A DNA stretch of 38,171 nucleotides from Syntrophobacterales bacterium. GTDB taxonomy: Bacteria; Desulfobacterota; Desulfobaccia; Desulfobaccales; 0-14-0-80-60-11. The notes under the pieces are model-generated. The model ran no database searches, was not told the origin of the DNA, and saw only the letters and a list, made by a program, of their open reading frames with translations. The stretch spans positions 1-38,171 of the forward strand of contig JAGVAH010000096.1 in assembly GCA_020060385.1 (NCBI GenBank), given 5' to 3'. The position numbers and the translations under genes were made by a program. Positions 6,617 through 27,046 of the stretch are shown in pieces (positions within the stretch are counted from its first letter, which is position 1; every line of letters starts with the position of its first letter).

Positions 6617-6833
6617 GTTCAAGGTTCAAGGTTCAAAGTTATTACGGGTTGCGGCCAAAGGGCTAGTAGTAAGCTGTCATTCTGAACGGAGCGCAGTGGA
6701 GTGAATCTCGTCTTTTGGCATTTCCCTGCTGCATTCAGTTCATTGGGCGACTCGGGACCCCAGCAAATCAGCGTGCCTGGCTATCCCTGAAACCGTTTCC
6801 TTAACTTTGAACTTTAAACCTTGAACTTTGAAC
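6617..6833. repeat. 217-bp unit bounded by inverted GTTCAA-repeat arms
   Basis: The left arm 6617-6640 is tandem GTTCAAG-type units ending in AAAGTT. The right arm 6803-6833 carries the same units inverted (AACTTTGAAC, ACCTTGAACTTTGAAC). Between them lies a TCATTCTGAACGGAGCG segment related to the repeat at 34239-34329. It fills most of the gap between the fusion-protein and RND pump genes. It looks like an inserted non-coding repeat unit. Confidence 0.7.
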
Positions 6834-6883
6834 TCAGATTTTTTCAAAGCAATATTCTATACCTAGCCTGACCGGTTAATTCC

Positions 6884-9800
6884 ATGGCTCAACCCTCCAA
6901 CGACCTCCATCTCGGCCTGACCGCCCGCCTGGTCAAGCTCTTTCTGCTGTCCAAGCTGCCCACCATCATCATCCTGGTCTGCCTGCTGGCCGGGGCCGCA
7001 GCCCTCCTCTACACCCCCCGGGAAGAAGACCCCCAGATCAAAGTGCCCATGGTGGACATCCTCATCCGCTTCCCCGGCGCCTCGCCGGAAGAAGTGGAAA
7101 ACCTGGTGGTCATCAACCTGGAGAAAAAGCTCTGGGAGATGGAGGGCTTAGAAGACCTCTATGCCCGGGCCGACTCCGGCTTCGCGGTGGTCACCGCCAA
7201 GTTCAAGGTGGGGGAGAACCTGGAGACCAGCCTCTTCAAGGTCTATAACCAGGTCTGGTCCAACATCGACCAAGTGCCCTCAGGCGTCGCGGGCTGGGTG
7301 GTCAAGCCCATGAACATCAACGACGTGCCCATCGTCACCCTCACCCTCTACAGCGAGAGCGCCAATGACTACGAACTCAGGCGGGTGGCGGACGAGCTCC
7401 TGCACCGCCTGCAAAACATCCCGGATACGGCCCGCTCCTACGTGGTGGCGGGGCGGAAGCGCCAGGTGCGGGTGGTGGTGGACCCGGTGCGCCTGGCGGG
7501 CCACGGCCTGGACCTGGCCGCGGTGGCCCAGGCCATACAGGTAAGCAACGTCAATGTGCCCGCGGGCCGCTTCTCCCGCCAGGATAAGGAATACCTGGTG
7601 GAGGCCGGGCCCTTTCTCAAGTCCGCGGGCGAAGTGGCCGACCTCCTGGTGGGCCTGCACCAGGGCAAACCGGTGTATCTGAGGGACGTGGCCCAAATCA
7701 TCGACGGCCCGGAAGAGCCGGTGGAGCTGAGCCGCATCGCCTTCGGGCCCGCGGCGGAGCTGGAGACCGGCCAGTCCCAGGGGGAATTTTATCCTGCGGT
7801 GACCATGGCCTTTGCCAAGCGCACCGGCACCAACGCGGTGACCGTGGCCGCGGGGCTGCTGGAAAAGGTCAAGGAGCTGCAACAGGAGATCATCCCTCCG
7901 AACATCAAGATCAAGGTCACCCGGGACTACGGCCAGACGGCCAATGAGAAGGTGAACGAACTCATCCGGGAGCTCCTCATCGCGGTCTTGTCCATCACCG
8001 TGCTGCTGACCCTGTTTTTGGGGTGGCGGGAGGCCCTCATCGTCGCCCTGGCGGTGCCCCTGACCCTGGCCATCACCTTGATGGGCAACATGATGTTCGG
8101 GTACACCATCAACCGGGTGACGCTCTTCGCCCTCATCCTCTCCCTGGGCCTGCTGGTGGACGACCCCATCATCGACGTGGAGAACATCCACCGCCACTTC
8201 CAGCTGCGCCAGCACCCGCCCCTGGAAGCCACCCTGGTGGCGGTGGACGAGGTGCGGAGCCCCACCATCCTGGCCACCTTCACGGTGATCATCAGTTTTT
8301 TGCCCATGTTCTTCGTCACCGGCATGATGGGCCCCTACATGCGGCCCATGCCCCTGAACGTGCCCCTGGCCATGCTCATGAGCCTGGCCATCGCCTTCAC
8401 CGTCACCCCCTGGGCCACTTACCACTTGCTAAAAAAGGAGTATGGCCGGGAGGAGAAAGAATTCGTCCTGGAGGAGACCTGGGTTTACCGGGTCTATACC
8501 CGCATCATGACCCCCCTCCTGGAGAGCCGCCGCAAGAGCCATCTGTTCCTCCTGACGGTGGCGGGACTCTTTTTAATCTCCGTGCTCTTGCCGGTTATCG
8601 GGCTGGTGCCCCTGAAAATGCTGCCCTTTGACAACAAGAACGATTTTCTGGTGGTCGCGGACCTGCCCCACGACACTCCCCTGGAAGGCACCCAGGTGGC
8701 CCTCCTGGATTTCGGGGCCTATCTCTCCAGGGTGGCGGAAGTGGACAACGTGGTGACCTACGGGGGGGTGAACGCGCCCATCGACTTTAACGGCCTGGTG
8801 CGCCATTACTACCTGCTCCAGGGCCCCTGGGTGGGGCAGATCCGGGTCAACCTGGCGGAAAAGGAACGGCGGGCCGCGGCCTCCCATGCCATCTGCCTCC
8901 GGGTGAGGCCGGCCCTGGAGGAGATCGCCCGGCGGCACCGGGTGCGGCTGAAGATCGTGGAAGTGCCCCCGGGGCCCCCGGACCTGCAAACCCTGGTGGG
9001 GGAAGTCTACGGCCCCCCCGGAGCGGGGTACGCCAGCATCATCCGGGAAGCGGAACGGGTGAAGAAGTTTTTCCTGAAGACCAAGGGGGTGGTGGACGTG
9101 GACACCTCCTTGAATACGGACCAGCCCCGCTGGCGCTTCCTGGTGGACCGGCAGAAGGCGGCCCTGAGCGGCCTGGGCGAGGCCCAGATTGCCAAGGGAG
9201 TGGCCATGGCCGCAGCCGGGGAGGTGGTGGGCCGGGTGCACGCGGACCCGGAACGGGAGCCCCTGCCCATCTTCCTGCGCTGGCCCCAGGCCCTGCGCTC
9301 CTCCACCCTGAGCCTGGGGCAACTCTATTTCAAAACACCCACCGGCCAGATGGCGCCCCTCCAGGAACTGGGCCATTTTGAGGAAGATTTGGCCCCCCAG
9401 CCCATCATGCGGAAAAACCTGGAGAGACTGGTCTTGGTCACCGGGGGGACCGCGGGCCTCTCCCCGGTGAACGCCATCCTGGACCTCATGGGGGATACCA
9501 AGCGGGAGCCGCCGCCTCCAGGCTTCCGGGTGAATTATGGGGGGGAGGGGGAGTGGAAGGTGACGGTGGAGGTCTTCCGGGACCTGGGGATGGCGTTCGC
9601 GGGGGCGCTCATCGGCATTTACATCCTCCTGGTGCTCCAGACCGCGTCCTTCACCATGCCCCTGGTGATCATGGTGGCCATCCCCCTGACCATGATCGGG
9701 GTGATGCCCGGCTTCGCCCTGCTGAATCTCCTTTTCACCCGGCCGGTGTCGGGCTTCGCCAACCCCATCTATTTCACGGCTACGGCCATGATCGGCATGA

Positions 9801-10114
9801 TCGCCCTGGCGGGCATCGTGGTGCGCAACTCCATCATCCTCATCGACTTCATCCACCACCATCTGGAGCGGGGCTATACTCTGGAAGACGCGGTGCTCCG
9901 GTCCGGCGCGGTGCGTTTCCGGCCCATCCTCCTCACCGCGCTGGCGGCCATGTTCGGCTCCTGGGTCATCACCCTGGACCCCATCTTCTCGGGCCTGGCC
10001 TGGTCCTTCATCTTCGGCCTCTTCGCCTCCACCCTCTTCTCCCTGGTGGTGGTGCCGGTGATCTTTTACCTCCAGGCCAACCGGCCGGAGGGCCGGTCCC
10101 AAGCCGCCGGCTAG
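6884..10114 (+). CDS. RND efflux pump, HAE-1-like (AcrB superfamily)
   Basis: A 1076-aa inner-membrane proton-driven efflux pump with the standard RND layout: TM1 (IIILVCLLAGAAALLY), a large periplasmic loop, TM2-6, TM7, a second loop and TM8-12. Asp426-Asp427 in LGLLVDDPIIDVENIHRHF correspond to the proton-relay Asp pair of HAE-1 pumps. The N-terminal REEDPQIKVPMVDI segment is common in this subgroup. It lacks the VDAAIVVVEQ metal-pump signature seen in the CusA-like pump of this window, so organic substrates are more likely than metal. It is the third gene of the operon starting at 4003. The substrate is not predictable. Confidence 0.93.
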   Translation: MAQPSNDLHLGLTARLVKLFLLSKLPTIIILVCLLAGAAALLYTPREEDPQIKVPMVDILIRFPGASPEEVENLVVINLEKKLWEMEGLEDLYARADSGFAVVTAKFKVGENLETSLFKVYNQVWSNIDQVPSGVAGWVVKPMNINDVPIVTLTLYSESANDYELRRVADELLHRLQNIPDTARSYVVAGRKRQVRVVVDPVRLAGHGLDLAAVAQAIQVSNVNVPAGRFSRQDKEYLVEAGPFLKSAGEVADLLVGLHQGKPVYLRDVAQIIDGPEEPVELSRIAFGPAAELETGQSQGEFYPAVTMAFAKRTGTNAVTVAAGLLEKVKELQQEIIPPNIKIKVTRDYGQTANEKVNELIRELLIAVLSITVLLTLFLGWREALIVALAVPLTLAITLMGNMMFGYTINRVTLFALILSLGLLVDDPIIDVENIHRHFQLRQHPPLEATLVAVDEVRSPTILATFTVIISFLPMFFVTGMMGPYMRPMPLNVPLAMLMSLAIAFTVTPWATYHLLKKEYGREEKEFVLEETWVYRVYTRIMTPLLESRRKSHLFLLTVAGLFLISVLLPVIGLVPLKMLPFDNKNDFLVVADLPHDTPLEGTQVALLDFGAYLSRVAEVDNVVTYGGVNAPIDFNGLVRHYYLLQGPWVGQIRVNLAEKERRAAASHAICLRVRPALEEIARRHRVRLKIVEVPPGPPDLQTLVGEVYGPPGAGYASIIREAERVKKFFLKTKGVVDVDTSLNTDQPRWRFLVDRQKAALSGLGEAQIAKGVAMAAAGEVVGRVHADPEREPLPIFLRWPQALRSSTLSLGQLYFKTPTGQMAPLQELGHFEEDLAPQPIMRKNLERLVLVTGGTAGLSPVNAILDLMGDTKREPPPPGFRVNYGGEGEWKVTVEVFRDLGMAFAGALIGIYILLVLQTASFTMPLVIMVAIPLTMIGVMPGFALLNLLFTRPVSGFANPIYFTATAMIGMIALAGIVVRNSIILIDFIHHHLERGYTLEDAVLRSGAVRFRPILLTALAAMFGSWVITLDPIFSGLAWSFIFGLFASTLFSLVVVPVIFYLQANRPEGRSQAAG

Positions 10115-12522: not shown

Positions 12523-12583
12523 TTTAAAAATACGTTTGGTCGCAGGCAATTCTTGGGGGTCAAAGGCTGAATCGGGGAAAATT

Positions 12584-14848
12584 ATGGAAGAACCGAACCT
12601 CAGTACGGAGGATAGGCAACTGCACACAGTTTTAAGGAAATATTGGCATGTACCCATCTTGGTCTTGATCGTGGTGGTATTATTCCTGGCGGGAGCCTGG
12701 TACGGGCAAAGAAAGGTCGATTCCCAAACGTCTGCCGGGGGCCGACGCATCTTGTATTATGTGGATCCCATGAATCCGGCCCACACGTCTCCTGAGCCGG
12801 GGTTGGCCCCCTGCGGCATGAAAATGGAGCCGGTCTACGCCGATGAGGGAGGTCAGGCTGCCGCCGCGTCCCTGCCTTCCGGGTCCGTCAAGATCAGTCC
12901 GGAAAAGCAGCAGATTATCGGGGTGCGTTTAGCCCCGGTGGCCAAGTCCCCCTGGAACTATACCCTCAGAACCGTGGGCAAGGTGGCCGCGGATGAGACC
13001 CGCACCTACCGGATTAATGCCTTCAGTGACGGTTTTATCATGAGGGTATTTGATAACTCCACCGGCAGTCTGGTCCGGAGGGATGAACCCCTGGCCACGT
13101 ATTACAGCAAGGATTTGTTCACGGCCTTACAGACCTACTATTATGCGGTCTATGCCATTGAGAACCTGCCGGAGGGCCAGCAACTGCCTGCGTCCCAGAA
13201 ACACTTCCTGGAAGCTCAGAAACGCGCGGCTGAATTAAACCTGATGAACCTGGGCCTGAGTATCCGGCAGATGAAAGACCTGGTCCGGAGCAAGGAAATC
13301 ACCCAAGAGATTTTCATCAACGCCCCGGTTACCAGTTTTGTCCTGGTGCGCAACGTCAGCCCGGGCCAAAAAATCGTTAATGGTGAGGAACTATACCGGC
13401 TGGCGGACTTGAGCCGGGTCTGGATCCAAGCGGATTTATTTAAGGATGAAGCAAAGTATGTCCGGCCAGGGGAAAAGGTAAAGGTAAACCTGGCCGGCCA
13501 AGACCAGAAGTATACGGCCACGGTGACCGAAATCCTCCCCGAATTCGACCCTGCGACCCTCACCGTCAAGGTGCGCCTGGAGATGGACAATCCGGGATTT
13601 GTCCTTCGGCCCGGGATGTTTGTGGACGTGGAGTTTCCCATCAAGATGCCGCCCACGGTCAACATCCCGGTGGACGCCATCTTGGATTCAGGGCTCAAGA
13701 AGACCGTGTTCGTGGACCGGGGCCAAGGTTTTTTCGAGCCCCGCCGGGTTAAGACCGGGTGGCGCCTGGGGGAACGGGCGGAAATCATCGAGGGTCTCGC
13801 GCCCGGCGAGCGCATCGTGGTTTCCGGCAATTTCCTCATCGACTCCGAAAGCCGCATGAAGCTGGCGGCCGCGGGGATGTTCGGGGAGGTCACCAAGGAT
13901 CCCGTCTGCGGTCTGAAGGTGGATGCCAGCAAGGCCAAAGCTGCCGGCCTCCAGGGCACTTATAAGAACCAGACCTATTATTTCTGTTGCGAGGAATGCA
14001 AAGAGCATTTTGACAAAAATCCCGGGCGCTATGCCGCCAAGCCAGGGGGGAGTGAGAAGACGGCCAGCGGTGCGGCCCCTGCCCGGAAACAGGAGGCCCA
14101 AGCCGTTAAGGCCAAGGACCCGGTATGCGGCCACGAAGTGGACCAGGCCCAGGCGCAGGCCGCAGGTCTGACCAGCGCTTATCAGGAAAAAACCTATTAT
14201 TTTTGCAGCTATAGCTGCAATAAGCAGTTCGACAAAGATCCGGAGCATTACCTGCACCAGGGGGCTCAGGCAGGGAGCGGCGGTGCCTCCTCGCCGGTCG
14301 TGGCCCAAACCGCCAAGGACCCGGTATGCGGCCTGCCGGTGGCCACGGGACCGGCGAAACAGGCGGGCAGGACCAGCGAATACCAGGACAAGCTCTATTA
14401 CTTCGACACCGCCGGCTGCAAGGCAAGGTTTGACAAAGACCCCCAATACTATTTATCTGGAAGTAAAGAGGCCACCTTACCTTACCTGCTCCCTGAAACC
14501 CCGACGTCTCCTGATTTATTGCTGCGGTTGAGGCGGGAATCAATTCGGGCCATACCTCCGGGGAAAGGCCAGTCCCTGGTGGAGGGCGCACCCCAGGGAA
14601 CCCAGGTGAAGCCGGCCCCGCCGCAAACTCCGCCGATGCAGCATCCTCCTGGGCAAACAATGCCGCCACCGCCTCAGGCGCCGCCAACTCCGCATTTGCA
14701 GCCGCCTGCGCCCTCATCTCCACCGGCGTTCCAGGCGCCGCCAGCGGCGCCGGCGCCCCAGCCCCAGGCGTCGCCATCCTCGCCCCAGGCCCAAACGTCA
14801 CCGCCATCGCCCTCCCCCTCTGGTGCTGGGGGTCACCGGCATGATTAA
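12584..14848 (+). CDS. CusB-like metal efflux adaptor with HMBD and three YHS modules
   Basis: A 754-aa periplasmic adaptor for the adjacent CusA-type pump. A membrane anchor (residues ~22-44) is followed by a heavy-metal-binding domain (ILYYVDPMNPAH ... APCGMKMEPVY, ~55-90) and then the CusB-like fusion-protein core (~100-430). Three YHS modules follow, each beginning DPVCG, near residues 437-485, 511-556 and 578-625. The first two keep two Cys in the second motif (YYFCCEEC, YYFCSYSC); the third reads YYFDTAGC and has lost one. A Pro/Gln/Ala-rich tail ends in HRHD. The family usually ends near residue 430, so the C-terminal half is an accretion. It overlaps cusA by 8 bp. Start: the ATG after GGGGAAAA. 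Confidence 0.93.
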   Translation: MEEPNLSTEDRQLHTVLRKYWHVPILVLIVVVLFLAGAWYGQRKVDSQTSAGGRRILYYVDPMNPAHTSPEPGLAPCGMKMEPVYADEGGQAAAASLPSGSVKISPEKQQIIGVRLAPVAKSPWNYTLRTVGKVAADETRTYRINAFSDGFIMRVFDNSTGSLVRRDEPLATYYSKDLFTALQTYYYAVYAIENLPEGQQLPASQKHFLEAQKRAAELNLMNLGLSIRQMKDLVRSKEITQEIFINAPVTSFVLVRNVSPGQKIVNGEELYRLADLSRVWIQADLFKDEAKYVRPGEKVKVNLAGQDQKYTATVTEILPEFDPATLTVKVRLEMDNPGFVLRPGMFVDVEFPIKMPPTVNIPVDAILDSGLKKTVFVDRGQGFFEPRRVKTGWRLGERAEIIEGLAPGERIVVSGNFLIDSESRMKLAAAGMFGEVTKDPVCGLKVDASKAKAAGLQGTYKNQTYYFCCEECKEHFDKNPGRYAAKPGGSEKTASGAAPARKQEAQAVKAKDPVCGHEVDQAQAQAAGLTSAYQEKTYYFCSYSCNKQFDKDPEHYLHQGAQAGSGGASSPVVAQTAKDPVCGLPVATGPAKQAGRTSEYQDKLYYFDTAGCKARFDKDPQYYLSGSKEATLPYLLPETPTSPDLLLRLRRESIRAIPPGKGQSLVEGAPQGTQVKPAPPQTPPMQHPPGQTMPPPPQAPPTPHLQPPAPSSPPAFQAPPAAPAPQPQASPSSPQAQTSPPSPSPSGAGGHRHD

Positions 14849-17800
14849 CCGCATCATCGATTTTTCGGTGCACAACAAGGTCATCGTCTTCATCATCGTG
14901 GCTGCGGCCTGCATGATGGGATGGTGGTCCATGCGCCATTTGCCCCTGGACGCGGTGCCGGACCTCACCGACACCCAGGTGATCATCTACTCCCGGTGGG
15001 ACCGCAGCCCGGACATCATCGAAGACCAGGTGACCTATCCCATCGTCACCGCCATGCTGGGCGCGCCCCAGGTCAAAGCCGTGCGCGGTTTTTCGGATTT
15101 CGGCTATTCTTACGTTTACGTGATTTTCGAAGACGGCACCGATATTTACTGGGCCCGATCCCGGGTCTTGGAATATTTGTCCGGGGTGTTGCCCGTATTG
15201 CCTCCGGGCGTCAGGACGGAATTGGGTCCCGACGCCACCGGCCTGGGTTGGATCTTTCAGTATGCCCTGGTGGACACCACCGGCAAGCACAGCCTGGAGG
15301 AGTTGCGCTCCTTGCAGGATTGGTATCTCCGCTATTACCTGAAAGGCGTCCCCGGGGTGGCGGAGGTGGCGCCGGTGGGCGGTTTCGTCCAGCAGTACCA
15401 GGTGAATGTGGACCCCAACCGGCTGCAGTCTTACAACCTGTCCATCAGCAAGGTGGCCAAGGCGGTGCAGGGCGGCAATAAAGAAGTGGGGGGCCGTCTC
15501 CTGGAATTCGGGGGCACCGAGTACATGGTGCGGGGCCGGGGTTACGCCAAGTCGCTGCAAGATTTTGAAAATATCGTTCTGGCCGCCAGTGAGGACGGCT
15601 CGCCCATCCGCGTCAAGGATATCGGCCAGGTGGTCAAAGGGCCGGATTACCGGCGGGGGGTCACCGACCTGGACGGCACCGGGGAGGTGGTCTCCGGGAT
15701 CGTGGTCATGCGCCAGGGGCAAAACGCCCTGGACGTCATTGACCGGGTCAAGGCCAAGATCAAGGAGATCGACCCCGGGCTGCCTAAAGGGGTCAAGATT
15801 GTCCCCATTTATGACCGCTCCGACTTGATCCAGCGGGCCATCGGCAATATGAAGTCCACCCTGGTGGAGGTGCTGATCACCGTTTCGGCGGTGATCCTCA
15901 TCTTTCTCTGGCACTTCCCCAGCGCCATCATCCCGGTGATCACCATCCCGGTGGCGGTGCTCATTTCTTTCATTCCCTTCCGGATGATGGGGGTCACGGC
16001 CAACATCATGTCCCTGGGGGGGATCATCATCGCGGTGGGGGCCTTGGTGGACGCGGCCATCGTGGTGGTGGAGCAGGTCCACAAGAAGCTGGAGAAGTGG
16101 CAGCAGACGGGCAGGCTCCAGGACTATCAGGAGATCGTGGTGGGCGCGGTCAAGGAGGTGGCGGGGCCCAGTTTTTTTGCCCTGCTGGTGATCGCGGTGG
16201 CCTTCCTCCCCGTTCTCAGCCTGGAGTCGGTGGAAGGCCGGATGTTCAAGCCCTTGGCCTACACCAAGAACCTGTCCATGCTGGTGGCCGCGGTCTTGGC
16301 CATTACCCTGGACCCGGCCCTGCGGCTGCTCTTCACCCACATGCAGAATTTCAATTTCCGGCCCCCCTGGTTGTGCCGGCTGACCAACGCCATGCTGGTG
16401 GGCACCATCCATAGCGAGGAGAAGCACCCCATCAGCCGGCGCTTGATCCGCTTTTATGAACCCTTGGTCACCTGGTCTCTCAAGCGCAAATGGTGGGTGA
16501 TCGGCGGGGCCGTGGCCCTGATGCTCCTGACCATCCCCGCGTATACGCACCTGGGGTCGGAATTCATGCCGCCCTTGGAGGAGGGGTCCATCCTCTACAT
16601 GCCCTCCACCATGCCGGGAATCTCCATCGGCGAAGCCCAAAAAGTGCTCCAGGTCACGGATCGCATCATCAAACAGTTTCCGGAAGTGGACCGGGTCCTG
16701 GGCAAGGCCGGCCGGGCAGAAACCTCCACGGACCCGGCCCCGGTGTCCATGCTGGAGACGGTGATCACCCTGAAGCCCAAATCCCAGTGGCGCCCGGGGA
16801 TGACCCAGGAAAAGCTCATCGCCGAGATGAATCAGGCCCTGACCCTGCCGGGGCTGGCCAACGCCTGGACCATGCCCATCAAGGGGCGCATCGAGATGCT
16901 GAGCACGGGCTTAAGGACCCCCGTGGGCATCAAGATCTCCGGGGACAATCTCCAAAAGATCGAAGAAATCGGGGCCCGCATCGAATCCCTGCTGCCCAAG
17001 GTCAAGGGGACCCGCAGCGTCTTTGCTGAGCGCACCGGCACCGGCTATTTTCTCGATTTCGATTGGCACCGGGAGCAACTGGCCCGCTATGGCCTGAGCA
17101 TCGATGAGGTCCAGGACGTGGTGCAGAACGCCATTGGCGGGGAAAACGTCACCACCACCGTGGAAGGGCGGGAACGCTACCCGGTGAATGTGCGCTACCA
17201 GCGGGACTTCCGCTCCGATTTCAGCGCCCTGGAGCGTATTCTGGTGCCGGCCTCCGGGGGCAAGCGGCAAATCCCCCTGGGGCAGCTGGCCACCATCAAG
17301 GTGGTGAGCGGGCCGGCCATGATCCGGGATGAGGACGGCCTCTTAACGGGCTATGTTTACGTGGATATCGCCGGCCGGGATGCCAACGGCTATGTGGAGG
17401 AAGCGGCCCGCCTCCTCACAGACAAGCTGCAACTGCCGCCGGGCTACGCCATCTCCTGGAGCGGCCAGTACGAAGCCGCGCAGCGGGTGAAGCAGCGCTT
17501 GCTCCTGGTGGTGCCCCTGACCCTCTTTCTCATCTTCCTGCTCCTTTATATGAATACCCGGTCCATCCCCAAGACCATGCTCATCATTCTGGCGGTGCCC
17601 TTTTCCGCGGTGGGGGCCGTCTGGTTTTTGTATCTGCTGGGCTACAACCTGAGCATCGCGGTCTGGGTGGGTTTGATCGCGCTCTTGGGAGTGGACGCGG
17701 AAACGGGCATCTTCATGCTCCTCTACCTGGACCTGGCTTACGAGCAGGCGAAAAAGGAAGGGCGGCTGAAGACGCTGCCCCAATTGCACGACGCCATCGT

Positions 17801-18026
17801 CGAGGGCGCGGCCAAACGGATCCGGCCCAAGTTCATGACCGCGGCCACCCTGCTCTTTGGGCTCATACCCATCATGTGGTCCACCGGGGCCGGGGCCGAT
17901 GTCATGAAACGCATCGCTGCGCCCATGATCGGTGGCATCTTCACCTCTTTTCTCCTGGAATTGCTGGTCTACCCCGCCATCTACGAGATCTGGAAATGGC
18001 ACTTCGAGGTGAAAAAGGAGGCTTAA
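14841..18026 (+). CDS. cusA: CusA-type heavy-metal RND efflux pump
   Basis: A ~1061-aa inner-membrane pump of the HME-RND family (Cu(I)/Ag(I)-type). The signature GALVDAAIVVVEQVHKKLE matches CusA/CzcA. Met587 (ILYMPST), Met637 (PVSMLET) and Met686 (RIEMLSTG) have exactly the 50/49 spacing of the E. coli CusA relay residues Met573, Met623 and Met672, so monovalent copper or silver is favoured over Zn/Co. Twelve TM segments and two periplasmic loops are present, and DAETGIFMLLYLD lies in the C-terminal TM region. The ATG at 14841 overlaps the cusB-like stop as ATGATTAA, which implies translational coupling. An in-frame upstream ATG at 14823 is less likely. No outer-membrane partner is adjacent; the TolC-type gene at 4003 may serve. 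Confidence 0.95.
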   Translation: MINRIIDFSVHNKVIVFIIVAAACMMGWWSMRHLPLDAVPDLTDTQVIIYSRWDRSPDIIEDQVTYPIVTAMLGAPQVKAVRGFSDFGYSYVYVIFEDGTDIYWARSRVLEYLSGVLPVLPPGVRTELGPDATGLGWIFQYALVDTTGKHSLEELRSLQDWYLRYYLKGVPGVAEVAPVGGFVQQYQVNVDPNRLQSYNLSISKVAKAVQGGNKEVGGRLLEFGGTEYMVRGRGYAKSLQDFENIVLAASEDGSPIRVKDIGQVVKGPDYRRGVTDLDGTGEVVSGIVVMRQGQNALDVIDRVKAKIKEIDPGLPKGVKIVPIYDRSDLIQRAIGNMKSTLVEVLITVSAVILIFLWHFPSAIIPVITIPVAVLISFIPFRMMGVTANIMSLGGIIIAVGALVDAAIVVVEQVHKKLEKWQQTGRLQDYQEIVVGAVKEVAGPSFFALLVIAVAFLPVLSLESVEGRMFKPLAYTKNLSMLVAAVLAITLDPALRLLFTHMQNFNFRPPWLCRLTNAMLVGTIHSEEKHPISRRLIRFYEPLVTWSLKRKWWVIGGAVALMLLTIPAYTHLGSEFMPPLEEGSILYMPSTMPGISIGEAQKVLQVTDRIIKQFPEVDRVLGKAGRAETSTDPAPVSMLETVITLKPKSQWRPGMTQEKLIAEMNQALTLPGLANAWTMPIKGRIEMLSTGLRTPVGIKISGDNLQKIEEIGARIESLLPKVKGTRSVFAERTGTGYFLDFDWHREQLARYGLSIDEVQDVVQNAIGGENVTTTVEGRERYPVNVRYQRDFRSDFSALERILVPASGGKRQIPLGQLATIKVVSGPAMIRDEDGLLTGYVYVDIAGRDANGYVEEAARLLTDKLQLPPGYAISWSGQYEAAQRVKQRLLLVVPLTLFLIFLLLYMNTRSIPKTMLIILAVPFSAVGAVWFLYLLGYNLSIAVWVGLIALLGVDAETGIFMLLYLDLAYEQAKKEGRLKTLPQLHDAIVEGAAKRIRPKFMTAATLLFGLIPIMWSTGAGADVMKRIAAPMIGGIFTSFLLELLVYPAIYEIWKWHFEVKKEA

Positions 18027-18320: not shown

Positions 18321-19313
18321 TTACATTTTGAGATTGGAGAAGATGATCTGGTAGGTGGCGATAGCGGTGAATAGCAGATAGGAGATGATGGAAGTCAGGG
18401 CGAGACGCCTCTGCATGGACGGCAAGGTCTCTTTCAGGCTGGGAATCTGCCTAAAAGGCATCAGCACCCCCACCCCCATGCCGGCCACCCCCCCCACCAA
18501 CAGCAGCAGATAGAGGCAATAGCCGATATAGCCGTATTCCTTCTGGAGGATGCAAAAAGGGCAATGATGGGTGGGCAGCTCATAAAAATAGATGGAAATA
18601 AAGGAGATGAAGGCGGCGATGGCTATCAGGAAGGTCAGGAGAATCGCGGCCGAGAACCCGTAGCCCATGCGGTCGCGGCGATAGAACGCCATCCCCAAGG
18701 CCAGGGTCCCCAGCATGGCGGCATAAAAGACGACCTCCATGGAGGCCCGGGGGAGGGAGACAATCTCTGCAGCCACGCCCGCGGTATCCCCACTAAACAC
18801 CGAACCGCAGCAGGAGGTAATGACTTCCGGCCTCAGCCCCAGGAAATACTTGGCCTGCATAATGGTCTCGGCCAGAATCAACGGCGCCAGGACCAGCAGC
18901 AGCAGGTATTTGACTTTGATGAGGGGATAATCGTACCCTTGGTTATCCGCAAAATTGATGATGAGCCAAAGTCCTGCCAGGAGGAAGGTAATTATTTTAA
19001 GCACTACCAGAGGGAAGCCCCACTGGTTGACGTTCAGGGACCCCACCGCGCACATGGCCCCGGTAAAAAAGGGGTGGAGGGCGTCCGCGGTGTAAATGAA
19101 CAAGAAGAGGGAAAAAAGTTGGAAAACCAGGACATAACCGAGAATCGTGGAGATGAGGTAGGTTTTTCTCTCCAGCCGCAGCTGGGTTTCGCTGCCGCTC
19201 TTGATATCCCAATACCTCAAAATCAGCGCGCCGGTGAAAGAGGCATAGAGCACCATGCCGCTGATCAGGAGGGAACTGAGAAAGAGGGCCAGGATTCCCG
19301 GTTTGAAAAACAC
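18321..19313 (-). CDS. eight-TM membrane protein with DsbB/VKOR-like CPFC motif
   Basis: A 330-aa polytopic inner-membrane protein with about eight hydrophobic helices (roughly residues 8-30, 53-75, 103-120, 134-150, 192-210, 221-243, 262-286, 303-325). A HHCPFCILQKEYGYIGY segment (Cys251, Cys254) sits just before a helix, like the redox CxxC of DsbB or VKOR proteins. Further cysteines are Cys88 and the pair Cys168-Cys169. A thiol-redox role supporting copper binding is an inference; I do not recognise a named family. Its GTG start directly abuts the ATPase stop codon, so it is the last gene of the NosL operon. Confidence 0.75.
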   Translation of the reverse strand: MFFKPGILALFLSSLLISGMVLYASFTGALILRYWDIKSGSETQLRLERKTYLISTILGYVLVFQLFSLFLFIYTADALHPFFTGAMCAVGSLNVNQWGFPLVVLKIITFLLAGLWLIINFADNQGYDYPLIKVKYLLLLVLAPLILAETIMQAKYFLGLRPEVITSCCGSVFSGDTAGVAAEIVSLPRASMEVVFYAAMLGTLALGMAFYRRDRMGYGFSAAILLTFLIAIAAFISFISIYFYELPTHHCPFCILQKEYGYIGYCLYLLLLVGGVAGMGVGVLMPFRQIPSLKETLPSMQRRLALTSIISYLLFTAIATYQIIFSNLKM

Positions 19314-20004: not shown

Positions 20005-21141
20005 TCAGGTGCGCATCACCGCATCCGGATCGATGGTGGCCGCCCGCCAAGAAGGGATAATGGTGGCCACGGTATAGGGAATCACCGTAAAAAAGAAAAG
20101 AATGGCGATCTGATAGCCACTGATAAAGGGGGTCAGGCGGAACTCCGGATAGAGAACGGCCCAGCCTTTGAGCACCGGCTCGAACAGGGTGGCTGAGGCG
20201 TAGAAGATATGGCCATAGGCCAGGATGATGCCCAGGAAGAAGGAGGACAGGGAGACCACCAGGCCTTCCCAAAATTTCATCTCCAGGACATCCGCGGTTT
20301 CCCAGCCGATGGCCTTGAGGATGCCGATCTCCCGCTTCTCTTCGGCGCTCAAGCCCGCGGCCTTGTCCCAGGCGAAGATCAGAAAGGCCAGGACCGCGCC
20401 GGCCAGGATGGCGATCATGATCCCCCCCCGCCAATCGAAGACTGCATCATAAGTCCTCAAGATCTCCTCCCGGGTAATGGCCCGGGTATCGGGGAGGGCG
20501 TCCACGATTTTGGCGGCAATGGTGGGAATCTCTTTTCGGTTGGCCACCTGCACTGTCAAATCCGTGGCCCGGTCCGGGGGGACGCCGAAAACGCGGGTGA
20601 ATCCCGGGACGGAAATCAAGATCAGGTCAGAGGACAGTAATTCCGAGTCGGGGCTGAGAACCCCCTTAATAAAAAAAGTGGCGGGCTTGCCGTCATAGGT
20701 GCGGAAGACGATGCTGCTGCCGCGAAAGAGCCGGCGCACCCGGGAAATGCCGGCCCCCACTATGATCTCCTGGTCTTTCAAAGGCAGATCCTCCGGCACC
20801 ATCAGGGTATAATTGGCCTGGGCCCCGGGATCATAATAATAGCCCCAGAACCGCGCCTTGACTGCCTTGACTCCTCGGATCTTGCCGATTTGGGCCCCAT
20901 GGGACACGGGGATGAGATCGTGTCTGCCGGCCACCATTTTCTGGACGATGATTTCCGGGGACCCCCTCAAGACCAGGGCCGCTTCGTTTTTCAGGGCCTG
21001 GGTAAAGAACATGACCGATCCCAGGACAAAGACCACCAGGGTATAGACCAGCACCAGGGCCAGGTTCTTGCCTTTGCGCCGCCACAGGGAGGAAAGGGTA
21101 AAGTCCAGGATATACCGCTGCTTGTCGATGGCTTTAATCAT
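20005..21141 (-). CDS. FtsX-like ABC permease
   Basis: A 378-aa permease of the MacB/FtsX superfamily. TM1 (about residues 27-50) precedes a periplasmic domain (~55-235). Three C-terminal helices follow (IMIAILAGAVLAFLIF, then VVSLSSFFLGIILAYGHIF and a final IAILFFFTVIPYTVATII). The conserved cytoplasmic stretch EEKREIGILKAIGWETADVLEMKFWEG in part is the family hallmark for ATPase contact. It ends 7 bp before the ATPase gene and begins with an 8-bp ATGATTAA overlap on the preceding small gene. Together they form an ABC unit dedicated to the NosL operon. Confidence 0.9.
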   Translation of the reverse strand: MIKAIDKQRYILDFTLSSLWRRKGKNLALVLVYTLVVFVLGSVMFFTQALKNEAALVLRGSPEIIVQKMVAGRHDLIPVSHGAQIGKIRGVKAVKARFWGYYYDPGAQANYTLMVPEDLPLKDQEIIVGAGISRVRRLFRGSSIVFRTYDGKPATFFIKGVLSPDSELLSSDLILISVPGFTRVFGVPPDRATDLTVQVANRKEIPTIAAKIVDALPDTRAITREEILRTYDAVFDWRGGIMIAILAGAVLAFLIFAWDKAAGLSAEEKREIGILKAIGWETADVLEMKFWEGLVVSLSSFFLGIILAYGHIFYASATLFEPVLKGWAVLYPEFRLTPFISGYQIAILFFFTVIPYTVATIIPSWRAATIDPDAVMRT

Positions 21142-21515: not shown

Positions 21516-22001
21516 TTAATCCAGGGTCTTAATGATATCCGGGGTTATGTGGTTAAAAGGCAAAATCTCCTTGCCCTTATGGTCGATTTTAAAGTCTTTG
21601 GCCGCAGCCGCGTCCTGAAAAGGGATCAGCTCTCTGCCCATGGGTCCGTAAATATCGCTGCCGATGACATAATGGGCCTGGAGGCCGTCAACCAGCTGCA
21701 TACTATAATAATCCGTCACCAGAATGAGGGCGATATCCTTCTGGTTCTTCCCAGGATTATATTTAGGCAGGTTAAAGTAATATTTCATCAGGTCCTTAAC
21801 CCCGTCGAAAAAGGCGTGGGTGCCGTCTTTAAAGACGATCTGGGCCACAAAATCCGGATATTTGGCCACAAACATGCCGCAAACCGGACATTTATCCGCC
21901 GGAGTGATCTTGGGGGGCTTGATCTCCTCTGCGCCCCAGAGAAGACCAGTTATGCCTAACAACAGGAAACCAAAGAAAATAAAGAACTTGAAAAATTTCA
22001 T
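21516..22001 (-). CDS. nosL: NosL-family copper-binding protein (first of two)
   Basis: A 161-aa exported protein with a signal-like hydrophobic N-terminus (residues 2-23). The NosL motif KCPVCGMFVAKYPDFVAQI has Cys38, Cys41 and Met43. NosL is a Cu(I)-binding accessory protein for nitrous oxide reductase, but no nosZ is visible here, so the client may be another cuproprotein. The conserved body includes FFDGVKDLMKYY and TDYYSMQLVDGLQAHYVIGS. The ATG at 22001 has GGGAG five bases upstream; a GTG two codons earlier is possible. It is the second gene of the operon. No lipobox is obvious, unlike many NosL. Confidence 0.9.
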   Translation of the reverse strand: MKFFKFFIFFGFLLLGITGLLWGAEEIKPPKITPADKCPVCGMFVAKYPDFVAQIVFKDGTHAFFDGVKDLMKYYFNLPKYNPGKNQKDIALILVTDYYSMQLVDGLQAHYVIGSDIYGPMGRELIPFQDAAAAKDFKIDHKGKEILPFNHITPDIIKTLD

Positions 22002-22098
22002 CAGCACTCCCTGCGTCGCCCGCTCCTTTTACAGAGAAGGGGCCAGTGGGAAATTCCCAGGGAAATTAAGGTCTCCCACTGGCCCGTTGCCTATCTGC

Positions 22099-22638
22099 CT
22101 ACTTCTTTTCCCCAGGCTGCATTGGCTGCATCTGGTGCATCTGCTTCATTTTGGCCCGTTTGGCCCGGATCATCTTCGTATCGTTATACATATCTTCGTA
22201 AGTGGCCTTTATGGCGTCTTCAAAGTTGGCGAGTTTGCCGCCGTTTTCCTTAATAAAGGCCAAGGCGTCCTTCTTGTCGGCAAAGGCCCATTTGGCCGTT
22301 TTCGTCATCACCCCCGGCTTTTTCCCGCCGATGACCCAGTAGGCCTTTTCCGCATCGATCAAATTTTTCTTATTGTAATCCGCCACCATTAGGGTTGTGG
22401 GCTGCTTATCGAGGGTGACAGCCAGATCGATGGCCGTGCAGTGGAGGCTGCAGGAACCAAAGCTGGAACCATCGCTATACTTTGTCAGCATCCGGCTGTG
22501 GGCAAATTTTTCCCGGTCCATGCCACAGTATTTACAGTTCTTATGGGCTTGAATATCTGGTAGGGTTTCGGCGTAAACTGTCACTCCGGTTAGTAAAAAT
22601 AACGCTGCCAGCATCCCGCATAAAATCTTTCTTTTCAT
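22099..22638 (-). CDS. NosL-family protein with second Cys pair and Met/His-rich tail
   Basis: A 179-aa exported protein whose signal peptide ends near VYA-ET (residue ~23). The NosL motif NCKYCGMDREKFAHSRM has Cys35 and Cys38. A second pair, Cys63 and Cys67 (SCSLHC), and a C-terminal KQMHQMQPMQ stretch offer additional potential copper ligands. The YWVIGGKKPGVMTKTAKWAF segment is the typical NosL core. AGGAGG precedes the ATG at ideal spacing. It is the promoter-proximal gene of the six-gene operon. Sequence similarity to the second NosL is limited, so the two probably have distinct tasks. Confidence 0.9.
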   Translation of the reverse strand: MKRKILCGMLAALFLLTGVTVYAETLPDIQAHKNCKYCGMDREKFAHSRMLTKYSDGSSFGSCSLHCTAIDLAVTLDKQPTTLMVADYNKKNLIDAEKAYWVIGGKKPGVMTKTAKWAFADKKDALAFIKENGGKLANFEDAIKATYEDMYNDTKMIRAKRAKMKQMHQMQPMQPGEKK

Positions 22639-23380: not shown

Positions 23381-23821
23381 ATGAAATGGCTTGGAATAAT
23401 GTTCATGGCCGCGCTGCTGGCAATGGCTCCGGGTTACGGGAGCGCGCAGCAGTCAAAGGATAAGTCGCCGGCTACCCAGCCCCAGAGCCAGCAAGTCAAG
23501 GGCGAAGGGGTGGGGGCGGCAAGAATTTACACCCCAGCGGAAAGACAGTCCTATGAAAAACAGACGGCCCAGGAATTGGAGGCAATCCAGCAACAAATTG
23601 CGGACTTGAGAGTTAAAGCCACCACCGGGTCGCCGCAAATGAAACGCCTGCTTATCCAGACCGCGAATAGCCTGCAGTTGCAGAAGACCGCGGCCAGATA
23701 TCAATTAACCGCCTTGGAAAAAGCCTCTGAAAAGGACTGGGCCCAGCAAAAAGTCGAGCTGGATAAGGCCTTGGCGGATTTGAGAAAGGCATGCGAAACA
23801 AATACAACATCCCGCAAATAA
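23381..23821 (+). CDS. periplasmic coiled-coil protein, unknown function
   Basis: A 146-aa protein with a clear signal peptide (MKWLGIMFMAALLAMAPGYG, cleavage near SA-QQ). A Gln/Ser/Lys-rich linker precedes a long helical, coiled-coil-prone segment (residues ~55-140: SYEKQTAQELEAIQQQIADL and later LEKASEKDWAQQKVELDKAL). GGAG precedes the ATG. It lies 163 bp upstream of the multicopper oxidase gene and may be co-transcribed with it. I do not recognise the family. A structural or chaperone-like role in the periplasm is possible. Confidence 0.75.
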   Translation: MKWLGIMFMAALLAMAPGYGSAQQSKDKSPATQPQSQQVKGEGVGAARIYTPAERQSYEKQTAQELEAIQQQIADLRVKATTGSPQMKRLLIQTANSLQLQKTAARYQLTALEKASEKDWAQQKVELDKALADLRKACETNTTSRK

Positions 23822-23984
23822 TGCCGGGCCATTCCGGAAAGTGCCGGATTTAACTGGACTTGATTGTCAGGGGAAAGGGGCGTGGCGAGGCGCCGCCAGT
23901 TTAGATTAGCCTCGGTAAGGCATTAACTTGCGGTGTCGGCCACAAAACACGGTTTATTTATCCGCACATCGAGGAGGGGAACAA

Positions 23985-26918
23985 ATGAGAAAGTTGAGAT
24001 GCATATTGCTAATGGGGTTGGCATGCATGGTGGCGGTCCTGCCAGGGGGGGGCAACCTGGCCTTTGGCAATACCGGGCCTGCTGGGGTGACTTTTTACGC
24101 CAATAGCCCTTCCGGCATCAGCCCACTCGGCAGCAACACCGGCACGGCGCTAAGGAAATTCGTCGACTCCCTGCCGGGTTTATCCGCAGATGGCGGCGTC
24201 ACCGGCGCCAACAACTTGGGACAGTATATTCCCCTAGCCGTCAAGGATACAACCACGTACCCGGGGAGCGATTATTACAAGATCGGCGTAGTCGATTATA
24301 CGAAAAAGGTGCATACGGATCTGCCCAAAGCCACCAAATTCCGGGGATATGTTGACCTCGCCACCGGTGGGACGCCTGTGCCCCAATATTTGGGACCCGT
24401 GATTGTGGCCGAAAGGGACCGGCCGGTGCGGATCTTGATGACCAATCAACTGGCCCCGACCCCTGGGGGCAAGCTCATGCTCCCGGTGGACATCACCCTC
24501 ATGGGGGCTGGGACGGGGCCCCTGGGCGCGCCTGCCGGTTATTACACCGAGAACCGCATCTCCACCCATCTCCATGGCGCATTTACGCCCTGGATCAGTG
24601 ATGGAACGCCACACCAATGGTATACCCCCAACGGAGAAACGAGCGCCTACCTTAAGGGGGCGAGTTTCCATAACGTACCCGACATGCCGGACCCGGGGGC
24701 AGGTAAGCAGACCATTTATTATACCAACCAGCAGAGCGGCCGCTTGATGTTTTACCACGACCACGCGGTGGCCATCACCCGCCTCAACGTTTATGCCGGC
24801 ATGGCTGCGGGTTACCTGATCCACGACCCGGTGGAGGACGATTTGATTGACGGCACCAATAATACGGGCGTCAATCCGGGTCTCCAAAAAATCATTCCTG
24901 ACAACGGCGGCGGGGTTTACAAATGGGGTATTCCTTTAGTTATTCAGGACAAAGGCTTTGTACCCCAAGACGTGCTCACCGTCCAGGATACCAAGTGGAA
25001 TTCAGCCTGGGGGACTTACGGCGACCTCTGGTACCCCCACATCTATGAGACGAACCAGAGCCTGACCGATCCCTCCGGGATGAACCCTTACGGCCGTTGG
25101 GACTTTGGCCCCTGGGTGCAGCCCAACATCTTGGCGCCCTTCGAGGAGGCACCCAAGTTGATGGCTGCTTTACCGCTGCCGGGGACGGACGTGAATCATC
25201 CCGAGAATTACCTCACCAGCACCGTGCCCGAAGCCTTCATGGACATCATGATGGTCAACGGCACCGTTTACCCCTACCTGAACGTGGAACCCAAGGCCTA
25301 CCGGTTCCGGATCCTCAATGCCTGTAACGACCGTTTTCTCAACCTGCAGTTGTACATGGACGCCTCGGGCGGCGGCTCCGGCGCCACGGCCACTGCAGTA
25401 CTTAATCCAGCCGGATATCTTCAGGTGATAAATGTTACAAACGGCGGCGCCCGTTATAGTCAGGCTCCCGGGGTCAACATCACCGGCGGCGGCGGTTTCG
25501 GCGCTATGGCTACCGCGGTAGTTTCAGGCGGACGGGTTATCGGCGTCTATCTTACCAACCCCGGCAGCGGTTATACCTCCCCTCCCACCGTCACCATTGG
25601 CGCCACCACGGAAGTCAGCATGGTGCAGGCGGTCCCCAATGGGAGCTACCCTCCCACTTGGCCCAAGGACGGCAGGGATGGCGGCGTGCCGGATCCCTTC
25701 AGCGCAGGACCCAAGTTCATCCAGATCGGCAACGAAGGGGGCATCCTGCCCGGGGTGACGGTGCGGGACAACCAGCCGATTAACTATGACTATGACCGGG
25801 GCAGCGCCACCTTTGGCAACGTCTTGAACAATGAGGGAATAGACCCCGCAGTTAAAGGCGTTACGGTCTTTCTGGGACCCGCGGAGCGGGCCGATGTCAT
25901 CGTGGACTTTTCCAGCGTGGCGCCGGGCACCAACGTCATTCTCTATAACGACGCGCCCGGGCCCGTGCCGGGCTTCCAACCCCGCTACGACTACTACACG
26001 GGCAACCCGGACCTGACCAGTACGGGCGGCGCCCCTCAGACCCAGGTGGGGGTTGGTCCCAACACCAGGACCGTCATGCAATTCCGGGTCAACGGAACTC
26101 CCGCCGCCACCTATAATCTGGCCGCGTTGGAAGCGGCCTTGCCCAACGCTTACGTGCTGTCCCAGCCCCCGCCCATCGTTCCGCAAACCTATTATCCGGG
26201 GGCCTATCATTCCAACGTCGACTATCATGCGAAAATCAATGACACTTCCCTGACCTATATCCCGGTCGGGAAAACTGCAGCAACGGTCCTGCAGGCGGGA
26301 CAGAAGGCCATAACCGAAATTTTTGAGCAATATGGCCGGTTGCAGGCCCGCCTGGGCTATGAGATCTTCGATCCCACCGCGAATCCGGCCAGATCCAATG
26401 GCGTCGGTTTCGCTTACATCGATCCGCCTGCAGAGAAATTTTTTAGAGGCGAGGTCCAGCTGTGGAAGATTACCCATAACGGTGTGGACACCCATCCCAT
26501 CCACATCCACCTTAACAATGCCCAGATCATCAACCGGGTTGGCTGGGACGGGGTGATCAAACCTCCCGAGCCCTACGAGAGGGGCTGGAAGGAAACCATC
26601 CGCATGAACCCGTTGGAATCCATCTTTATCGCCCAGAAGGCCGATTTGCCCACTCTTCCCTTCAGGGTTCCACGCAGCCGCCGGCCTCTTAACCCCGCGC
26701 GGGCACTGGGTGACACGGAAGGATTTACCAACATCAACCCCTTGACCGGACAACCCCTTGCCCCAACTCCTACGGTTAACATCATGGCTGACTTCGGCCA
26801 TGAGTACGTGTGGCACTGTCACATCCTGGCGCATGAAGAGAACGACATGATGCGGGCCCTGGTGGTGAGGGGGGTGTTTGATGTTGGATCTTTGGATTTG
26901 CTTCTGCTGAATAATTGA
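23985..26918 (+). CDS. exported multicopper oxidase, CotA/bilirubin-oxidase type, with inserted Gly-rich domain
   Basis: A 977-aa exported oxidase; an ideal GAGGAGGGG ribosome site supports the ATG at 23985, which begins a Sec-type signal peptide. All four copper motifs are present: HLHG (His195, His197), HDH (His258, His260), HPIHIH (His837, His840, His842) and HCHILAHEENDMM (His944, Cys945, His946, His950, axial Met955). YHDHAVAITRLNVYAGMAAGYLI is typical of the CotA/bilirubin-oxidase subgroup. It is far longer than the usual ~500-600 aa. Residues ~460-545 form a Gly-rich repeat module (GSGATATAV, VTNGGARYSQAP, NPGSGYTSPP) inserted between cupredoxin parts. Plausible substrates are Cu(I), Mn(II) or phenolics; the cus/nosL context favours copper handling. 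Confidence 0.93.
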   Translation: MRKLRCILLMGLACMVAVLPGGGNLAFGNTGPAGVTFYANSPSGISPLGSNTGTALRKFVDSLPGLSADGGVTGANNLGQYIPLAVKDTTTYPGSDYYKIGVVDYTKKVHTDLPKATKFRGYVDLATGGTPVPQYLGPVIVAERDRPVRILMTNQLAPTPGGKLMLPVDITLMGAGTGPLGAPAGYYTENRISTHLHGAFTPWISDGTPHQWYTPNGETSAYLKGASFHNVPDMPDPGAGKQTIYYTNQQSGRLMFYHDHAVAITRLNVYAGMAAGYLIHDPVEDDLIDGTNNTGVNPGLQKIIPDNGGGVYKWGIPLVIQDKGFVPQDVLTVQDTKWNSAWGTYGDLWYPHIYETNQSLTDPSGMNPYGRWDFGPWVQPNILAPFEEAPKLMAALPLPGTDVNHPENYLTSTVPEAFMDIMMVNGTVYPYLNVEPKAYRFRILNACNDRFLNLQLYMDASGGGSGATATAVLNPAGYLQVINVTNGGARYSQAPGVNITGGGGFGAMATAVVSGGRVIGVYLTNPGSGYTSPPTVTIGATTEVSMVQAVPNGSYPPTWPKDGRDGGVPDPFSAGPKFIQIGNEGGILPGVTVRDNQPINYDYDRGSATFGNVLNNEGIDPAVKGVTVFLGPAERADVIVDFSSVAPGTNVILYNDAPGPVPGFQPRYDYYTGNPDLTSTGGAPQTQVGVGPNTRTVMQFRVNGTPAATYNLAALEAALPNAYVLSQPPPIVPQTYYPGAYHSNVDYHAKINDTSLTYIPVGKTAATVLQAGQKAITEIFEQYGRLQARLGYEIFDPTANPARSNGVGFAYIDPPAEKFFRGEVQLWKITHNGVDTHPIHIHLNNAQIINRVGWDGVIKPPEPYERGWKETIRMNPLESIFIAQKADLPTLPFRVPRSRRPLNPARALGDTEGFTNINPLTGQPLAPTPTVNIMADFGHEYVWHCHILAHEENDMMRALVVRGVFDVGSLDLLLLNN

Positions 26919-27010: not shown

Positions 27011-27046
27011 CAGAGATCCTGGCCCAGCCAGGATCTCTGCTTTTTT
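27011..27046 (+). terminator. Rho-independent terminator after multicopper oxidase
   Basis: A perfect 12-bp stem CAGAGATCCTGG / CCAGGATCTCTG with loop CCCAG is followed by C and six T. It lies 93 bp after the oxidase stop codon. It also separates the oxidase from the convergent channel operon. Confidence 0.93.

What the first reader, a model, noticed from the sequence alone, without database searches (positions are those of the whole stretch)
23381..26918. Coiled-coil periplasmic protein paired with an over-long multicopper oxidase
The oxidase has all copper motifs but is 977 aa. Residues ~460-545 are a Gly-rich repeat module (GSGATATAV, NGGARYSQAP, NPGSGYTSPP) found otherwise in surface or adhesive proteins. 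The upstream 146-aa coiled-coil protein has no known relative that I recognise and may be its partner. The insert could tether the enzyme to a surface or mineral.
Basis: partly seen in the sequence, partly recalled or inferred. Interest (0 to 1): 0.55.

Follow-up and report, generated by a model that had tools for sequence, protein, structure and literature searches.

The report
Phage virion module in copper oxidase
A bacterial copper-containing oxidase, related to secreted enzymes implicated in metal redox reactions, carries in one loop a small, undescribed protein domain that is common in the tails and necks of viruses of bacteria; some relatives carry the same domain at other sites and most lack it, which suggests a swappable surface part rather than part of the catalyst.

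Summary
The oxidase (23985-26918, 977 aa) is real, has all four copper motifs, and belongs to a secreted multicopper-oxidase family some of whose members sit in ompB/mofA-type gene clusters. Its Gly-rich insert is 79 aa (residues 462-540; 25368-25604), two repeats, 45% identical. No Pfam or NCBIfam family matches it (0 of 37 copies) and no clear PDB match was found. It is common in phage virion proteins (375 phage records; PHROG E 3e-16; predicted viral fold TM 0.89). It is absent from 34 of 46 family members examined; carriers hold it at four different sites. In 297 genomes of the window's phylum and 198 of another, all 21 module matches at E<=1e-6 lie in this oxidase family; in a third phylum it is mostly in other proteins. 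Its dN/dS is 2.4-3.9 times that of the core. Most likely it is a looped-out decoration or attachment module: insertion shown, binding inferred. The upstream 146-aa protein is sll1863-family, linked to the oxidase in one clade only. Around lies a copper island (CusBA, two NosL, ABC transporter).

The parts
23985..26918 (+). OmpB/MofA-related secreted multicopper oxidase, 977 aa (P0001, numbered P1)
25368..25604 (+). phage-virion-type two-repeat beta module, P1 462-540 (79 aa), inserted in the domain-2 hairpin
25605..25706 (+). family-specific rest of the hairpin loop (TTEVSMVQAVP...GGVPDPFSA), present without the module in relatives
24567..24578 (+). copper motif HLHG (P1 195-198)
24756..24767 (+). 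copper motif HDHA (P1 258-261)
26493..26510 (+). copper motif HPIHIH (P1 837-842)
26814..26852 (+). copper motif HCHILAHEENDMM (P1 944-956)
23381..23821 (+). 146-aa sll1863-family protein (P0002) with a signal-peptide-like start, 163 nt upstream of the oxidase
12536..14848 (+). CusB-type adaptor with extra YHS/TRASH metal domains
14823..18026 (+). CusA/CzcA-type heavy-metal RND efflux pump
18321..19313 (-). 330-aa protein, no family match, kept with the ABC genes in relative L059
19314..20000 (-). ABC transporter ATPase
20005..21141 (-). FtsX-like permease
21516..22007 (-). NosL protein 1
22099..22638 (-). NosL protein 2
27011..27039 (+). possible intrinsic terminator (13-bp stem, T run) 92 nt after the oxidase stop
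   Evidence: consensus scan only; 4 found, 5.8 expected in shuffles, but this stem is by far the longest

Best explanation
The gene encodes a secreted multicopper oxidase of the OmpB/MofA-related family in a copper-handling gene island. In a domain-2 hairpin it carries one copy of an undescribed beta-rich module, the same module that phages build into tail tubes, necks and baseplates. It works as a looped-out surface part: it takes no part in the copper chemistry but makes weak contacts with something outside the enzyme (cell-surface or matrix polymer, mineral, or like modules) and so keeps the enzyme near its substrate. Shown: the insertion and its bounds, its absence from most relatives, its recurrence at four sites, similarity in sequence and predicted fold to phage modules, fast evolution. 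Inferred: that the loop is exposed, that it binds, and what it binds. P0002 may be a helper; contact is unproved.
For: Phage kinship: PHROG 2.8e-16, 375 phage records, 133 bits against 13.6 for the best of 60 shuffles, 46 predicted viral structures at E<=1e-3, best TMq 0.89. Insertion: 12 of 46 family proteins carry it; four sites with clear junctions; fewest label changes on the tree 11. In phage PseuP_224 it likewise interrupts the tail tube protein. Window's phylum: 10 of 10 matches in this oxidase family (7 of 297 genomes); another phylum 11 of 11 (5 of 198 genomes). dN/dS 0.65-0.76 against 0.20-0.27 in the core. Some relatives bear FnIII (L075) or FG-GAP (L059) modules. OmpB is described as outer-membrane-associated, needed for reduction of Fe(III) oxides, with an FnIII domain possibly used to attach to them (PMC5566968, section 13). 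Copper island.
Against: No binding or activity data. The full-length AF2 model is poor (mean pLDDT 37), so exposure of the loop rests on alignment to CotA and on relatives. P0001 has no FnIII match, and no MofB, MofC or SCO1 family was found in the window genes scanned. The genome shows no COX1 match, so what an O2-using enzyme does there is open. dN/dS of 0.65-0.76 leaves room for weak or no selection. In a third phylum the module is mostly in other proteins, so it is not an oxidase speciality everywhere. OmpB and MofA sequences were not compared directly.
Confidence: 0.55

Rival explanations
1. The module stabilises or oligomerises the secreted enzyme, or gates its substrate channel, rather than binding an outside surface.
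For: It sits in a hairpin of the cupredoxin body; tandem copies occur (L057, L243); phage homologues are in oligomeric virion parts.
Against: 34 of 46 family proteins lack it and it occurs at four sites, two of which (N-terminal stretch, domain-2/3 linker) lie outside the cupredoxin domains by alignment (inferred); it evolves faster than the core.
Confidence: 0.22
2. The module is a tolerated insertion in permissive loops with little or no selected function, spread by recombination of a repetitive sequence.
For: dN/dS 0.65-0.76 and lower GC3 than the rest of the gene (0.61 against 0.73); variable copy number and site.
Against: In two phyla all matches at E<=1e-6 fall in this one oxidase family (21 of 21), which random spread would hardly give; all four members of the window's clade keep it.
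Confidence: 0.13
3. The module has a phage-related role: the oxidase mimics or blocks a virion part (decoy), or the gene was once carried by a phage.
For: The window's module scores higher against phage copies (69.1 bits) than against other oxidases outside its clade (54.1) or other cell proteins (53.8) (the phage set was picked by similarity to it).
Against: No PADLOC family matches P0001 or P0002; none of the window genes scanned with Pfam is a phage family; the modules of other oxidases show no constant preference for phage copies.
Confidence: 0.05
4. P0002 is a dedicated partner of the oxidase (chaperone or anchor), perhaps in the place of the MofB-type isomerase found beside some relatives.
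For: Upstream, same strand, in G000, G016 and G013 and across contig ends in G003; these four form one clade that also shares the module; FKBP isomerases sit near the oxidase in L059, L060, L064 and L065.
Against: One clade only; sister L058 and the 11 other module-bearing loci scanned show no P0002 match at E<=1e-8 nearby (L242-L246 not scanned); P0002 homologues occur in 13 further genomes, whose 13 best loci show no oxidase match within the about 1.5-kb flanks.
Confidence: 0.3

Closest known systems
OmpB of Geobacter sulfurreducens / MofA of Leptothrix discophora (secreted multicopper oxidases)
   Same: Relatives of the oxidase (L066, L171, L174) sit beside SCO1/SenC and a protein with periplasmic-binding similarity and one haem motif, and others beside an FKBP isomerase, as PMC5566968 (section 13) describes for ompB/mofA clusters; long; L075 has FnIII repeats over the Pfam cut-off.
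   Different: P0001 has no FnIII match, carries a phage-type module in a domain-2 hairpin, and sits in a CusBA/NosL island. OmpB and MofA sequences were not compared directly.
CotA laccase (Bacillus spore coat)
   Same: Best solved relative, E 7e-37; same copper motifs.
   Different: 513 aa; two residues (CotA 268-269) stand where P1 has 118, 79 of them the module.
Virion structural proteins of T4-like cyanophages (neck, baseplate wedge; phrog_701, phrog_708, phrog_460) and the tail tube of Pseudomonas phage PseuP_224
   Same: Same module in sequence and predicted fold; in the tail tube it also interrupts the host domain.
   Different: There it is part of a virion, here of an enzyme.
Ig-like and FnIII decoration domains of phage and secreted bacterial proteins (recalled, from no call)
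   Same: Small beta modules added to exposed sites of unrelated scaffolds, thought to aid weak adhesion.
   Different: Different sequence family: no Pfam match for any of 37 module copies.
Sll1863 (Synechocystis general stress protein)
   Same: P0002 matches NCBIfam NF052504 over its cut-off; Sll1863 is strongly salt-induced and of unknown function (PMC8670252, passages).
   Different: P0002 has a signal-peptide-like start and lies beside an oxidase; no shared function is shown.

Membership tests
multicopper oxidase (three-domain, CotA-like) | four copper-binding motifs and cupredoxin similarity | tested here: met
   Cu-oxidase_2 over its cut-off, Cu-oxidase_3 below; CotA E 7e-37; motifs
OmpB/MofA-type secreted MCO | homology over the core to oxidases that lie in ompB/mofA-type clusters | tested here: met
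   L066 in the alignment; L066, L167, L168, L171, L174; their neighbours SCO1/SenC and/or the haem-motif periplasmic-binding protein (some of these Pfam matches are below the curated cut-off)
OmpB/MofA-type secreted MCO | direct sequence similarity to OmpB (GSU1394) or MofA | not tested
OmpB/MofA-type secreted MCO | mofB (isomerase), mofC (cytochrome) or SCO1 gene beside the oxidase | tested here: not met
   none among the window genes scanned; not held as defining, since the G. sulfurreducens cluster itself lacks mofB
OmpB/MofA-type secreted MCO | fibronectin type III domain (reported for OmpB) | tested here: not met
   no fn3 match in P0001 up to E 1; so it is filed as a relative, not as an OmpB
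OmpB/MofA-type secreted MCO | EXXE motifs (reported for OmpB) | tested here: inconclusive
   two in P0001, 0-3 in relatives; so short a motif arises by chance
phage-virion-type beta module | profile match to phage copies | tested here: met
phage-virion-type beta module | same predicted fold as viral proteins | tested here: met
   Foldseek against BFVD, 46 hits at E<=1e-3
any named Pfam or NCBIfam domain (module) | match at E<=0.01 | tested here: not met
   0 of 37 copies in each library
any solved fold (module) | clear structural match in PDB | tested here: inconclusive
   Foldseek best E 1.1, VIA best Z 3.6
sll1863 family (P0002) | score over the NCBIfam cut-off | tested here: met
   40.7 against 35 bits, residues 54-140

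The most novel reading that the evidence does not exclude
An undescribed beta-rich decoration domain is shared between tailed-phage virions and extracellular multicopper oxidases of the kind implicated in metal redox reactions. Oxidases in several phyla captured it repeatedly, at four distinct sites and in up to about four tandem copies, and use it as phages may, as a general low-affinity attachment part, so that enzymes acting on poorly soluble metals are held on cell surfaces or minerals by a virion-type adhesin.
Probability: 0.35. Interest if true: 0.75.

Novelty: new variant of a known kind. Interest (0 to 1): 0.6.

Why it matters
How secreted OmpB/MofA-type oxidases keep in touch with insoluble minerals or the cell surface is open. 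Here is a compact, autonomously folding (predicted), removable 79-aa module, matched by no Pfam or NCBIfam family and by no clear solved structure, that natural relatives carry at different sites or lack. That makes attachment testable by comparing natural variants. It also ties a widespread phage virion domain to a defined enzyme, which may help to find what the virion copies do.

Tried and rejected
Structure of the whole oxidase: AF2 with 7 rows gave mean pLDDT 37, used only for the hint that the module was the best-predicted stretch. PDB match of the module: none clear; VIA rows (T-cell receptor chains, R2-type pyocin tail fibre 6ct8, xylan-binding domain 1e5b, phage tailspike 4ru5) have Z 2.3-3.6 and are not claimed. 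NosZ in the genome: the search was silent in the controls too, so no statement. Promoter scan: 4 found, 2.9 expected, nothing claimed. Plasmids: no match to the module. Own genome: no second copy of the module at E<=1e-3 (next best E 0.29). Literature: the motif GGSGYT in the held papers 0; cyanophage with glycine-rich repeats 0; baseplate wedge initiator with repeats 0; virion structural protein with tandem or glycine-rich repeats 0; oxidase with virion or domain insertion 7 and oxidase with fibronectin, glycine-rich, phage 9 papers, seen as listings only, none of which by title or abstract start treats this module. The library lacks most subscription papers. Low-complexity chance similarity: rejected by shuffles. 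Assembly chimera: unlikely, as the same arrangement is in G003 (named record L074), G016 and G013. In my first tree L223 was labelled as without module; it has one and replace that tree. An early idea that the module is exclusive to oxidases everywhere was rejected.

Counting limits: the genome scans for the module used E<=1e-6, so weaker copies in other proteins are not excluded. One search found 45 of 288 genomes; I looked at the 29 new loci it returned (1 oxidase, L223), and its match list was cut; G407 itself (L199) is a further oxidase case. The 46 proteins come from the 43 loci I had fetched (L054-L077 without L074, and L163-L182), chosen by oxidase similarity; the queries (P0001, A2) contained the module, so a slight bias towards carriers is possible, and not every hit was fetched. 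For one search I dropped 6 distant oxidases and added 8 proteins that module scans had found (L199-L201, L242-L246), so its 20 of 48 is biased. 'Secreted-looking' for the proteins is by eye.
Full report
What is there. ORF 23985-26918 (+) encodes a 977-aa protein with the copper motifs HLHG, HDHA, HPIHIH and HCHILAHEENDMM and a signal-peptide-like start. Pfam Cu-oxidase_2 scores over its cut-off (40.6 against 20.4), Cu-oxidase_3 below (13.2 against 21); NCBIfam models PhsA and CueO match far below their cut-offs; the closest solved relative is CotA laccase, E 7e-37. ORF 23381-23821 (146 aa) lies 163 nt upstream on the same strand. A 13-bp terminator-like stem follows the oxidase at 27011-27039 (consensus only).

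Family. In 148 relatives' genomes 22 have a match to the oxidase at E<=1e-3, many of them weak; with an alignment profile 32 of 395 genomes of the phylum do at E<=1e-60. Named records of Lentisphaerae, Actinomycetota and Euryarchaeota MAGs (L075-L077) encode relatives of 47-53% identity in the best segment. L074, of the same genus as the window's genome, is titled Syntrophales (the order is in Thermodesulfobacteriota). In L066, L171 and L174 the oxidase lies near a SCO1/SenC gene and a protein with periplasmic-binding similarity and one CxxCH motif; L167 and L168 have the latter (the periplasmic-binding match is over its cut-off in L174 and L167 only). FKBP isomerases lie near it in L059, L060, L064 and L065 (Pfam), and by BLAST grouping alone in L063 and L066. 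That resembles the ompB/mofABC clusters described in PMC5566968 (section 13 read). No such neighbour was found among the window genes scanned.

Neighbourhood. Upstream lie CusB with YHS/TRASH domains, CusA, a 330-aa protein, an ABC ATPase, an FtsX-type permease and two NosL genes. L059 keeps the 330-aa gene, ABC, FtsX, two NosL and CusB near its oxidase; L065 keeps CusA, CusB and two NosL; L056 has CusB, CusA, P0002 and the oxidase in line; L055 has CusB, CusA and P0002; L199 has a CusA-like pump upstream. Most of the other oxidase loci scanned show none of these. So the window's oxidase belongs to a copper-handling island that is kept in some relatives. The genome shows no COX1 match (PF00115; the control rings in 8 of 14 genomes).

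The insert. CotA residues 267 and 270 align to P1 456 and 575. In one search the stretch between P1 454 and 575 is 120 aa in P0001 and 5-78 aa in the family proteins without module, except L059 (271, FG-GAP). The difference to L058 (41) is the 79-aa module, P1 462-540, between QLYMDAS and TTEVSMV. Its halves are 45% identical over 38 aa. The rest of the loop (TEVxMVxAVP...GGVPDP) is common in the family.

What the module is. tblastn finds 375 of 50,697 phage records (311 with 80% or more of the query in one place), mostly Synechococcus phages and cyanophages; the 40 rows shown are annotated as virion structural, neck, baseplate or tail tube proteins, or not at all. PHROGs: phrog_701 2.8e-16, phrog_708 1.8e-15, phrog_460 9e-12. 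None in plasmids. Against proteins of the 80 viral loci it scores 133 bits; 60 shuffles at most 13.6, reversed 7.0. AF2 with 37 module rows gives pLDDT 86.3, pTM 0.72 and six strands. Foldseek finds 46 viral models at E<=1e-3, best 1.3e-8 with TMq 0.89, and no PDB match better than E 1.1. None of 37 copies matches a Pfam or NCBIfam family at E<=0.01; the PDB profile search has best E 0.44. In phage PseuP_224 the tail tube protein matches phrog_158 over residues 2-240 for only 147 profile positions, with the module at about 103-189: an insertion there too.

Where it occurs. Of 46 oxidase-family proteins picked by oxidase similarity, 12 carry it. After dropping 6 distant ones and adding 8 found by module scans, 20 of 48 carry it, at four sites: N-terminal, P1 37-79 (7 proteins); domain-1 loop, 167 (1, truncated L199); domain-2 hairpin, 453-461, with L174 placed further along the same loop at 550 (7); domain-2/3 linker, 743-754 (5). 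On a quick tree the fewest label changes are 11: N-terminal 4, hairpin 4, linker 3, domain-1 1 (starred branches force 4, 3 and 3 for the first three); gains and losses are not told apart. In 297 genomes of the window's phylum all 10 matches at E<=1e-6 (7 genomes) lie in these oxidases; in 198 genomes of the phylum of the Actinomycetota-named MAG, 11 of 11 (5 genomes, one of them the MAG through which I came). In 288 genomes of the phylum of the Lentisphaerae-named MAG 45 have it, and of 29 loci looked at 1 is an oxidase and 28 are other proteins, many very large and secreted-looking by eye. So it is a general module in one phylum and, at this threshold, an oxidase speciality in two others.

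Rates. Between P1 and L054 the module has dN/dS 0.76 and 59% identity, the core 0.20 and 86%; between P1 and L056 0.65 and 66%, against 0.27 and 80% (Nei-Gojobori, 80 module codons). This fits a surface appendage under weak constraint, and does not exclude little constraint. L059 carries FG-GAP repeats (Pfam 8.5e-20) in the same hairpin loop further along, and L075 FnIII repeats (7 stretches) at the C-terminus; the FnIII match of L061 is below the cut-off. L060 and others have tails without such a match.

P0002. It matches NF052504 (sll1863 family) above the cut-off. Sll1863 is a strongly salt-induced protein of unknown function (PMC8670252, passages). Homologues of 40-69% identity lie next to the oxidase in G016 and G013 and at contig ends in G003; 13 further genomes of 148 have weaker homologues (E<=1e-3), and their 13 loci show no oxidase within the flanks held. 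The four linked oxidases form one fully supported clade, so the linkage counts as one event.

How it most likely works. Shown: a copper oxidase with a removable module of the kind used in phage virions. Inferred: it is exposed, decorates the enzyme and makes weak contacts outside it, as has been proposed for FnIII in OmpB (PMC5566968). Not known: what it binds, the substrate of the oxidase, whether P0002 touches it, and the direction of transfer between phages and cells. The window's module scores best against phage copies (69.1 bits, against 54.1 for oxidases outside its clade and 53.8 for other cell proteins), but that phage set was picked by similarity to it, and of the eight oxidase modules tried only some prefer phage copies.

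Noticed in passing
window 4003-10114 +: A second RND-type efflux set (outer-membrane efflux protein, HlyD-type adaptor, AcrB-type pump) before the CusBA genes.
   Followed up: no
window 12536-14848 +: The CusB-type adaptor carries three YHS stretches and TRASH-like matches after the barrel, a possible metal-binding tail.
   Followed up: no
L199:3997-5430 +: Truncated oxidase ORF of a Lentisphaerae-named genome with about four module units in a domain-1 loop, downstream of a CusA-like pump; it leaves the family sequence soon after VPDM.
   Followed up: partly
L059:7032-10427 +: Oxidase with FG-GAP repeats in the same hairpin loop where the window's oxidase has the phage-type module.
   Followed up: partly
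L202-L230: The module occurs in many other, often very large proteins of the phylum of the Lentisphaerae-named genome (open frames up to about 17,000 aa among the matches).
   Followed up: partly
L247:2707-3432 +: Tail tube protein of Pseudomonas phage PseuP_224 interrupted by the module.
   Followed up: yes
whole genome G000: No COX1 match although the genome encodes at least two multicopper oxidases; cytochrome bd was not looked for.
   Followed up: no
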